A stretch of 64,000 bases of DNA, taken from positions 52,559-116,558 of the forward strand of contig NZ_JANFNH010000016.1 of NCBI RefSeq assembly GCF_024436055.1, written 5' to 3'. This DNA comes from Streptantibioticus rubrisoli (GTDB taxonomy: Bacteria; Actinomycetota; Actinomycetes; Streptomycetales; Streptomycetaceae). The translations under genes were made by a program, and so were the position numbers. Position 1 is the first letter of the stretch; every line of letters begins with the position of its first letter. Positions 13,590 through 15,087 of the stretch are shown here, piece by piece. Below the pieces are notes generated by a model. It was given only the letters and a program-made list of their open reading frames with translations, made no database searches and was not told the origin of the DNA.

Positions 13590-14618
13590 ATGGCGTTGCG
13601 GGTGGCGGTGGCGGGGGCCAGTGGGTACGCGGGGGGTGAGGTGCTGCGGCTGCTCTTGGGGCATCCCGAGGTGCGGATCGGGGCCGTCACCGGGAACTCC
13701 AACGCCGGGCAGCGGCTCGGGGCCGTGCAGCCGCATCTGGTGCCGCTCGCCGAGCGGGTGCTCGAAGACACCACGCCCGAGGTGCTCGCCGGGCATGACG
13801 TGGTCTTCCTCGCGCTGCCGCACGGGCAGTCCGCCGCCGTGGCGGAGCGGCTCGGGGACGGGACGCTGATCGTGGACTGCGGCGCGGACTTCCGGCTGAG
13901 GTCCGCCGCCGACTGGGAGAAGTTCTACGGCTCCGCGCACGCCGGTACCTGGCCGTACGGGCTGCCCGAACTGCCCGGCGGACGCGAGGCGTTGCGCGGC
14001 GCCCGGCGGATCGCCGTGCCGGGGTGCTACCCCACCGCCGTGTCGCTCGCGCTGTACCCCGCGTACGCCGCCGGGCTGGCCGAGCCCGAGGCCGTGGTGG
14101 TGGCCGCCTCCGGGACGTCCGGCGCGGGCAAGGCGCCCAAGCCGCACCTGCTGGGCAGCGAGGTGATGGGCTCGATGAGCCCGTACGGCGTCGGCGGCGT
14201 GCACCGGCACACCCCGGAGATGGCGCAGAACCTCTCCGCCGTGGCGGGCCACCCGGTGACCGTCTCGTTCACCCCGACCCTCGCCCCGATGCCGCGCGGC
14301 ATCCTGGCCACCTGCAGCGCCAAGGCCACCCCGGGCGTGACCGCGCAGACGCTGCGCGCGGCGTACGAGAAGGCGCTGCGCGACGAGCCGTTCGTGCGTC
14401 TGCTGCCCGAGGGCCAGTGGCCGTCCACCGCGGCCGTCCACGGATCCAACTCCGCGCTGCTGCAGGTCGCCCACGACGAGACGGCCGACCGGATCATCGC
14501 CATCAGCGCCATCGACAACCTCACCAAGGGCACCGCGGGCGGCGCGGTGCAGAGCATGAACATCGCCCTCGGCCTCCCGGAGGAGCTGGGGCTTTCCACG
14601 ATCGGAGTCGCACCGTGA
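13590..14618 (+). CDS. argC: N-acetyl-gamma-glutamyl-phosphate reductase
   Basis: A 342-residue NADPH-dependent enzyme reducing N-acetylglutamyl phosphate to the semialdehyde, the third step of arginine synthesis. The N-terminal Rossmann fold has VAVAGASGYAGGEVLRLL. The catalytic cysteine is C146 in AVPGCYPTA. Later motifs include SGTSGAGKAP and FTPTLAPMPRGI. ATG 13590 sits eight bases after an excellent GGTTGAGGAGG ribosome site; the upstream TTG in frame is part of that site. First gene of the argCJBDR operon. Its stop overlaps a GTG that opens a series of small repeated ORFs instead of argJ directly. Confidence 0.97.
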   Translation: MALRVAVAGASGYAGGEVLRLLLGHPEVRIGAVTGNSNAGQRLGAVQPHLVPLAERVLEDTTPEVLAGHDVVFLALPHGQSAAVAERLGDGTLIVDCGADFRLRSAADWEKFYGSAHAGTWPYGLPELPGGREALRGARRIAVPGCYPTAVSLALYPAYAAGLAEPEAVVVAASGTSGAGKAPKPHLLGSEVMGSMSPYGVGGVHRHTPEMAQNLSAVAGHPVTVSFTPTLAPMPRGILATCSAKATPGVTAQTLRAAYEKALRDEPFVRLLPEGQWPSTAAVHGSNSALLQVAHDETADRIIAISAIDNLTKGTAGGAVQSMNIALGLPEELGLSTIGVAP

Positions 14619-14707
14619 GCGACGCACGCGAGGCCGCCGGGCCGCGGACGACGACAAACCGGAACCTTCGCCTCGCGGGCGGAGAAGCGAACGGAGCAGC
14701 ACCGTGA
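14615..14707 (+). CDS. repeat mini-ORF 1 (30 aa)
   Basis: Thirty residues beginning MSDAREAAGPRTTTNRN. GTG overlaps the argC stop as GTGA, and its own TGA overlaps the next GTG by four bases. No similarity to a known family. It may be translated only as a by-product of coupling. Confidence 0.4.
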   Translation: MSDAREAAGPRTTTNRNLRLAGGEANGAAP

Positions 14708-14796
14708 GCGACGCACGCGAGGCCGCCGGGCCGCGGACGATGACAAACCGGAACCTTCGCCTCGCGGGCGGAGAAGCGAACGGAGCAGCACGGTGA
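14704..14796 (+). CDS. repeat mini-ORF 2 (30 aa)
   Basis: Second copy, differing from copy 1 by Met in place of Thr at position 13 and a terminal Arg. GGAG at 14693-14696 precedes the GTG by seven bases. Ends in a GTGA overlap with copy 3. Confidence 0.4.
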   Translation: MSDAREAAGPRTMTNRNLRLAGGEANGAAR

Positions 14797-14885
14797 GCGA
14801 CGCACGCGAGGCCGCCGGGCCGCAGACGACGACAAACCGGAACCTTCGCCTCGCGGGCGGAGAAGCGAACGGAGCAGCACGGTGA
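14793..14885 (+). CDS. repeat mini-ORF 3 (30 aa)
   Basis: Third copy; carries Gln in place of Arg at position 11. Same GGAG site, start and GTGA overlap arrangement as the neighbouring copies. Confidence 0.4.
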   Translation: MSDAREAAGPQTTTNRNLRLAGGEANGAAR

Positions 14886-14974
14886 GCGACGCACGCGAGG
14901 CCGCCGGGCCGCGGACGATGACAAACCGGAACCTTCGCCTCGCGGGCGGAGAAGCGAACGGAGCAGCACGGTGA
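14882..14974 (+). CDS. repeat mini-ORF 4 (30 aa)
   Basis: Fourth copy; encodes the same peptide as copy 2, with Met at position 13. Ends in a GTGA overlap with copy 5. Confidence 0.4.
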   Translation: MSDAREAAGPRTMTNRNLRLAGGEANGAAR

Positions 14975-15087
14975 GCGACGCACGCGAGGCCGCCGGGCCG
15001 CGGACGACGACAAACCGGAACCTTCGCCTCGCGGGCGACAGTGACATCAGCCGCTACCGCGGCGGAGTGAACGGAGTAGCACTGTGA
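14971..15087 (+). CDS. repeat mini-ORF 5 (38 aa), coupled to argJ
   Basis: The last copy keeps the first 22 codons of the repeat, then reads a unique tail (DSDISRYRGGVNGVAL). Its TGA at 15085-15087 overlaps the argJ GTG at 15084, so the chain of overlaps reaches argJ unbroken. The reading frame being kept open to this exact point is notable. Confidence 0.4.
   Translation: MSDAREAAGPRTTTNRNLRLAGDSDISRYRGGVNGVAL

What the first reader, a model, noticed from the sequence alone, without database searches (positions are those of the whole stretch)
14615..15087. Chain of five translationally coupled mini-ORFs inserted between argC and argJ
Four full 89-bp units and a fifth partial one separate argC from argJ, which normally overlap directly. 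Each unit has GGAG seven bases before a GTG and encodes a 30-residue peptide (38 in the last) whose TGA overlaps the next GTG as GTGA. The first GTG overlaps the argC stop and the last TGA overlaps the argJ GTG, so six consecutive overlaps keep ribosome re-initiation possible all the way. An 89-bp unit changes frame each time, so the overlap design, not a protein repeat, is what is conserved. Near identity of units suggests recent expansion, and copy number could vary and tune the ArgC:ArgJ ratio.
Basis: partly seen in the sequence, partly recalled or inferred. Interest (0 to 1): 0.85.

Follow-up and report, generated by a model that had tools for sequence, protein, structure and literature searches.

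The report
Mobile ribosome-relay repeats in Streptomyces operons
Five tandem copies of a short, likely mobile DNA repeat sit exactly where two arginine-synthesis genes overlap in several related genomes, and because each copy brings its own start codon, tiny reading frame and ribosome-binding site, ribosomes are predicted to be handed along the chain to the second gene; the same repeat sits at many other gene junctions across the Streptomyces family.

Summary
In detail: five units (4 x 89 bp, 1 x 113 bp) between argC and argJ form six consecutive GTGA stop/start overlaps. The same genome has copies at six other places (pstC-pstA, pnuC-ribBA, LuxE-LuxC pair, cysC-cysD, before lipB, one near a transketolase-like gene), and 72 of 297 sampled family genomes have a match; outside the family only one short partial match was seen. 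Related genomes show empty argC-argJ and cysC-cysD junctions, so insertion is precise, directly before the overlap. Unit number differs between species (0, 1, 2, 5 at argC-argJ; 9 in S. morookaense elsewhere). The relay is kept: 72 of 85 arrays in a second sample chain into the next frame, against 82 of 630 ordinary GTGA sites. The peptide shows no selection beyond that in shifted frames; complementary arms covary. Anatomy matches mycobacterial MIRU elements; common descent is not shown. Best reading: a small parasitic repeat tolerated because it preserves translational coupling, then amplified. Tuning of ArgC:ArgJ is possible but untested. No mobilising enzyme was found, and short-read assembly could misstate unit number.

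The parts
13590..14618 (+). argC, N-acetyl-gamma-glutamyl-phosphate reductase; its TGA (14616-14618) overlaps the first repeat GTG
   Evidence: NCBIfam TIGR01850 386.6 bits, cut-off 233.6; sequence
14615..14703 (+). repeat unit 1 (89 bp); mini-ORF 14615-14707, 30 aa
14704..14792 (+). repeat unit 2 (89 bp, identical to unit 4); mini-ORF 14704-14796, 30 aa
14793..14881 (+). repeat unit 3 (89 bp); mini-ORF 14793-14885, 30 aa; complementary arms at 14801-14812 and 14848-14859 (11 of 12 positions pair, read from the sequence)
14882..14970 (+). repeat unit 4 (89 bp); mini-ORF 14882-14974, 30 aa
14971..15083 (+). repeat unit 5 (113 bp, 24 bp longer than the others, the difference lying after 15036); mini-ORF 14971-15087, 38 aa
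15084..16235 (+). argJ, glutamate N-acetyltransferase; its GTG overlaps the stop of mini-ORF 5
   Evidence: NCBIfam NF003802 458.8 bits, cut-off 351

Best explanation
This is a five-unit tandem array of a dispersed and likely mobile short repeat that sits exactly in front of the four-base stop/start overlap (DTGA) of two operon genes, and it probably lets ribosomes terminate and restart at each GTGA so that argJ would still be translated by coupling to argC. Shown: the dispersal, the exact insertion point against empty sites at two loci, the unbroken chain of overlaps in most copies, the covarying arms, and species differences in unit number. Inferred: that the repeat moves (no enzyme found), that ribosomes really pass along the chain, that the element is mainly a tolerated parasite, and that the array grew by slippage or unequal crossing-over. 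Each unit is a self-contained relay: GTG start, about 30 codons, a purine-rich ribosome-binding site, and a length of 3n-1, so the target's own TGA closes the frame. Ribosome flow to the downstream gene would therefore survive insertion and amplification.
For: Own genome: further copies at 74-81% identity at six other places, including pstC-pstA, an NMN transporter and RibBA, a LuxE-LuxC pair, cysC-cysD and before lipB. Family: 72 of 297 genomes at E<=1e-6, a lower bound because at most 3 candidates per genome were scored; 46 stretches in named Streptomyces and Streptantibioticus records. Exact insertion: empty argC-argJ in relatives reads for example GGAGTCGCACC|GTGAGCGTC; cysC-cysD is empty in congener G001 and holds a precise 93-bp insert in G000. 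Relay kept: 72 of 85 arrays of the second set (two duplicates of the first set removed) chain by DTGA overlaps into a frame of at least 50 codons, against 82 of 630 ordinary GTGA sites in the same loci; in the first set 56 of 78 against 175 of 1337. With an upstream frame of at least 60 codons also required: 64 of 85 against 37 of 630, and 48 of 78 against 94 of 1337 (the narrower control gave 60 of 1346). Of 173 distinct mini-ORFs of up to 60 codons 167 end in DTGA, against 236 of 550 and 123 of 228 ordinary short frames. Tandem spacings in the second set: 26 of 33 are 2 mod 3 (89, 92, 119, 122), 6 are 0 mod 3 (87, 90, 114), 1 is 103. In G000 the cysC-cysD copy lacks its 5' GT, yet CysC reads on through it and its new TGA overlaps the cysD GTG; the kinase profile ends before the extension. 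Peptide not selected beyond shifted frames.
Against: No ribosome profiling or reporter data. No mobilising enzyme: the Y1 transposase family is absent from G000, G001, G002, G009 and G024, which hold 78 of the 94 matches, though three of the six genomes that have it (G010, G022, G023) also carry the repeat. In-frame fusions (17 of 78 and 6 of 85 arrays) are no evidence by themselves, since 710 of 1337 and 364 of 630 ordinary GTGA sites also open a frame of 80 codons or more. Arrays at one locus in related species are not independent (43 downstream-protein clusters from 83 arrays). L148 has no overlap at its end, and L195, L231 and L241 do not end in DTGA. Single-unit RNA folding is no stronger than shuffles (z -0.11 to 1.38).
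Confidence: 0.8

Rival explanations
1. The array is a domesticated tuner: each termination/restart loses some ribosomes, so unit number is selected to set the ArgJ:ArgC ratio.
For: Unit number at argC-argJ is 5, 2 and 1 (degraded) in three congeners and 0 in others; arrays of 2 to 9 units occur at other loci.
Against: The same repeat occurs at functionally unrelated junctions, and filled argC-argJ junctions are rare (2 of 394 family genomes carry the intact 5' junction pattern), so no argC-argJ-specific role is indicated.
Confidence: 0.2
2. The arms form a structured RNA or single-stranded DNA hairpin that is the real function (mRNA stability, processing or mobilisation), and the reading frame is incidental.
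For: Two-sided changes in 13 of 17 pairs, 91.4% of cells paired against 13-54% when slid (alignment fitted to the structure); with an alignment made without structure, 12 of 17 pairs, 84.1% against 20-49%.
Against: Folding energies of five units do not differ from shuffles; a pure hairpin would not need 3n-1 lengths and DTGA ends. No Rfam family reaches its gathering score on the array.
Confidence: 0.25
3. The units encode a useful small peptide whose gene was amplified.
For: The mini-ORF is open in most copies and a consensus peptide VSDARAAAGPQTTT... exists.
Against: pN/pS 0.86 is equal to that of one shifted frame; the two window peptides tested have no NCBIfam match; read-through variants are accepted.
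Confidence: 0.04
4. The array is an ordinary minisatellite or an assembly artefact.
For: 103-contig assembly; units 2 and 4 are identical.
Against: Dispersed copies at unrelated loci and in many genomes, and arrays at the same junction in G002 and at other loci in other species.
Confidence: 0.05

Closest known systems
MIRU, mycobacterial interspersed repetitive units (Supply et al. 1997, not read; passages of PMC12548453 and PMC2734929 read)
   Same: Short (40-100 bp) dispersed units, apparently mobile, placed at start codons so that a small internal ORF couples with -4 nt spacing; copy number varies at some locations.
   Different: Different host group and no sequence relationship shown; here the arms covary, units are mostly 89-95 bp and begin GTGAGCGACGC, and some copies became in-frame extensions of neighbouring proteins (LipB, LuxC-like, CysC in this genome). 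Whether MIRUs share these traits was not tested.
REP/BIME repeats moved by RAYT (Y1) transposases (recalled)
   Same: Short dispersed palindromic repeats.
   Different: REP lie outside genes and carry no coupling ORF (recalled); Y1 transposase is absent from the window genome.
Short upstream ORFs and bicistronic designs that deliver ribosomes to a coupled gene (described in PMC12548453, passage read)
   Same: A short ORF whose job is to hand a ribosome to the next start.
   Different: Those are single, locus-specific ORFs; here the relay is a repeated dispersed cassette in series.

Membership tests
MIRU-type coupling repeats | short unit of 40-100 bp, dispersed at many places in one genome | tested here: met
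   89-95 bp typical; seven places in G000, the window array included; 25 matches in G009, partial ones included
MIRU-type coupling repeats | located at stop/start (DTGA) junctions of neighbouring genes | tested here: met
   empty sites; 48 of 78 and 64 of 85 arrays meet both the upstream and the chain criterion
MIRU-type coupling repeats | internal small ORF overlapping both neighbours by 4 nt | tested here: met
   167 of 173 distinct mini-ORFs end in DTGA; frames longer than 60 codons were left out of that count
MIRU-type coupling repeats | tandem copy number varies | tested here: met
   between species: argC-argJ 0/1/2/5, hisB junction 1/2/3; not tested between strains
MIRU-type coupling repeats | sequence homology with mycobacterial MIRU | tested here: inconclusive
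MIRU-type coupling repeats | demonstrated translational coupling | not testable with these tools
   needs reporters or ribosome profiling
REP/RAYT | palindromic unit with covarying arms | tested here: met
REP/RAYT | Y1 transposase in the same genome | tested here: not met
   0 matches in G000, G001, G002, G009, G024; 6 of 41 genomes have it, three of them with the repeat

The most novel reading that the evidence does not exclude
Streptomycetes carry their own family of mobile ribosome-relay elements that target translational-coupling junctions, keep the ribosome flow through tandem chains of up to nine mini-ORFs, and by copy number reset the protein ratio of operon partners, while covarying arms serve their mobility through an enzyme not yet known.
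Probability: 0.3. Interest if true: 0.82.

Novelty: new variant of a known kind. Interest (0 to 1): 0.68.

Why it matters
It shows start/stop-overlap repeats that work like MIRUs outside the mycobacteria, and gives a natural series (0, 1, 2, 3, 5, 9 relays of one design) for measuring how efficiently ribosomes pass from stop to start. It may also give copy-variable markers for Streptomyces, and shows how a repeat can enter dense operons without breaking them and sometimes turn into protein extensions.

Tried and rejected
Peptide function: pN/pS equal to a shifted frame, no family match. RAYT/REP mobilisation: Y1 transposase absent from the element-rich genomes checked. Known RNA family: only four sub-threshold minus-strand L31-leader matches, about 20 bits against a cut-off of 35. 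Terminator or promoter in the array: none found; the one terminator-like site is on the minus strand inside argJ. Simple target-site duplication of DTGA: not supported as a faithful copy, since 18 single units have GTGA at the 5' end and ATGA at the 3' end, although 81 have GTGA at both and 3 have ATGA at both. Energy-based hairpin evidence: not significant, although covariation is. In-frame fusion as evidence of selection: dropped after its control. Literature: no paper in the held library has either 14-mer of the unit. Searches found no paper with all terms. In the listings (several cut to the top rows of long lists) I saw no title on such a repeat in Streptomyces. The library lacks most subscription papers, so this is weak evidence of absence.

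Full report
Observation. The window holds argC (13590-14618), then five repeat units, then argJ (15084-16235), argB, argD and argR. Units 1-4 are 89 bp and differ from each other at 0-2 positions; unit 5 is 113 bp. Each unit starts with GTG, encodes 30 aa (38 in unit 5), carries GGAG seven bases before the next GTG, and its TGA overlaps the next GTG as GTGA. Six overlaps in a row connect argC with argJ. Spacing of 89 follows from a four-base overlap: any unit that restarts this way must be 3n-1 long.

The unit is a dispersed repeat. In the window's own genome (7.26 Mb, 103 contigs), BLAST finds further copies covering nearly the whole unit at 74-81% identity at six other places, one of them three in tandem; a shorter variant at C38 was read by eye. 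Flanking genes: pstC-pstA; an NMN transporter and RibBA, a LuxE-like and a LuxC-like protein, and a transketolase-like frame that one array reaches only through a second short frame; LipB, extended in frame by the copy; an adenylyl-sulfate kinase and CysD. Among 41 relatives 12 have matches at E<=1e-3; one of these, G027, is in another family of the same order and has a single 35-base partial match. In the family sample 72 of 297 match, with only three candidates per genome scored. A class sample gave 10 of 296, all in the window's family. An exact pattern found 46 stretches in named records, all Streptomyces or Streptantibioticus.

Empty sites and precision. Of 41 genomes searched with ArgJ, 40 matched; 30 loci were returned and 29 were read by my script (L084 was missed), one of these without argC nearby, leaving 28 junctions. 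Eight show argC and argJ overlapping directly at the conserved position (GTGA, ATGA or TTGA), and six more overlap with an ArgJ extended by a multiple of three bases. Three congeners are filled: G000 with 5 units, G002 with 2, G001 with 1 that lost its 5' part; G008 has one unusual copy. The remaining ten have other spacers. A named strain, Streptomyces sp. NBC_01446, has one unit at the same junction. At cysC-cysD, 17 of 30 loci could be read by my script; congener G001 is empty (GGC|GTGACG) and G000 has a 93-bp insert directly before the same GTG. There the copy lacks its first two bases; CysC runs through it and its new TGA overlaps the cysD GTG, so coupling is kept by another route.

The relay is what is kept. 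First set (the window, G000 and relatives, plus the pattern hits): 83 non-redundant arrays, 78 with the 5' end, 77 of them starting GTGA. Of the 78, 56 chain through mini-ORFs into an open frame of at least 50 codons, 17 open a long frame at once (counted as fused), and 5 are other (L056 and L135 are cut by contig ends; L032 chains through a second short frame; L036 is the cysC case; L148 is broken). Second set (89 loci: 80 regions and 9 search loci from BLAST hits): 87 arrays with a 5' end, 74 chain, 6 fused, 7 other; two of the 87 duplicate first-set arrays, and without them it is 72, 6 and 7 of 85. By eye, four of the seven (L170, L206, L217, L220) still reach a later long frame through overlaps; L195, L231 and L241 do not end in DTGA. 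Controls with the same rules on ordinary GTGA sites of the same loci: chain 175 of 1337 and 82 of 630; chain plus an upstream frame of at least 60 codons 94 of 1337 and 37 of 630, against 48 of 78 and 64 of 85 arrays. The fused class is not informative by count, since 710 of 1337 and 364 of 630 ordinary sites fall in it; in two fused cases of this genome (LuxC-like, LipB) the known domain begins after the extension. Tandem spacings in the second set: 26 of 33 are 2 mod 3, six are 0 mod 3, one is 103. Of 189 mini-ORFs of up to 60 codons (173 distinct), 183 (167 distinct) end in DTGA. Related species share insertions (43 downstream clusters from 83 arrays), so the counts are not independent events.

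What is conserved in the unit. The 5' end GTGAGCGACGC, two complementary arms, and a purine-rich 3' end that supplies the ribosome-binding site. On 123 distinct copies 91.4% of cells pair, 13 of 17 pairs show two-sided changes, and slid versions fall to 13-54%. That alignment was fitted to the structure; with an alignment made without it the values are 84.1% and 12 of 17, against 20-49%. Folding energies of five single units do not differ from shuffles, so the arms may matter as DNA rather than RNA. The peptide shows pN/pS 0.86, against 1.04 and 0.86 in shifted frames, on 82 distinct 31-aa units: no sign of selection on the peptide.

Copy number. Arrays of more than one unit: 17 of 83 in the first set, 23 of 89 in the second. 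S. morookaense has nine 92-bp units, all linked by GTGA, before a gene that matches penicillin-binding protein 2 (365 bits, below the cut-off of 455; the frame is cut by the locus end). At the hisB junction different species have 1, 2 or 3 (HisB itself tested in one of them). Short-read assemblies may miscount.

Mechanism. Shown by sequence: location, frame design, precision, dispersal. Inferred: each arriving ribosome terminates at TGA and restarts at the overlapping GTG, so coupling passes through the insert. An element built like this can enter tightly packed operons at little cost, which would explain its spread; tandem growth is then nearly neutral or mildly tuning. No mobilising enzyme was found; only the Y1 transposase family was searched for.

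Known relatives. The review PMC12548453 (passages read) describes mycobacterial MIRUs as apparently mobile units that insert at start codons so that an internal ORF is coupled with -4 nt spacing, citing Supply et al. 1997 (not read). PMC2734929 (passages read) gives 40-100 bp, 41 locations, 12 of them polymorphic. The present family works like a MIRU. Descent from MIRU was not established, so I file it as a variant of that kind rather than a member.

Noticed in passing
window 15037-15070; L127, L136, L146 ends of element; L129, L133, L137, L139, L143, L151: Some copies carry secondary segments (a GACAGTGACATCAGCCGCTACCGCGGCGGA-like stretch, or a palindrome of the type TGGGGGTACCTCCCAG...CTGGGGGAG) that lengthen the mini-ORF while the chain stays intact, as if smaller repeats had nested inside the element.
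   Followed up: partly
L124, L134, L141, L144, L152, L159, L161, L163: At one recurrent locus the element appears to form the start of a long frame (VSDAREADEPRTEADEPRTE...), with local re-duplication of a short acidic motif; the protein was not identified.
   Followed up: no
window 63660-63977: Array of degenerate 23/45-bp repeats (GGTTTCCATCAAGCCCGTCCGG) just downstream of a frame ending at about 63595.
   Followed up: no
window 35792-35868: Tandem palindromic 29-bp repeat CGGGGGCGAAGCCCCCGAAAACGGGGGC.
   Followed up: no
L078-L082, L087 (argC-argJ junctions): In six relatives ArgJ starts at the argC overlap but has an extra 18-72 bp in-frame N-terminal extension, possibly another way in which the junction was altered.
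   Followed up: no
window 13535-13590: AT-rich stretch upstream of argC (TGCATAAAAGTTCGCTGCACCGTATAGTCATGCC) that looks like an ArgR operator; recalled resemblance, not tested.
   Followed up: no
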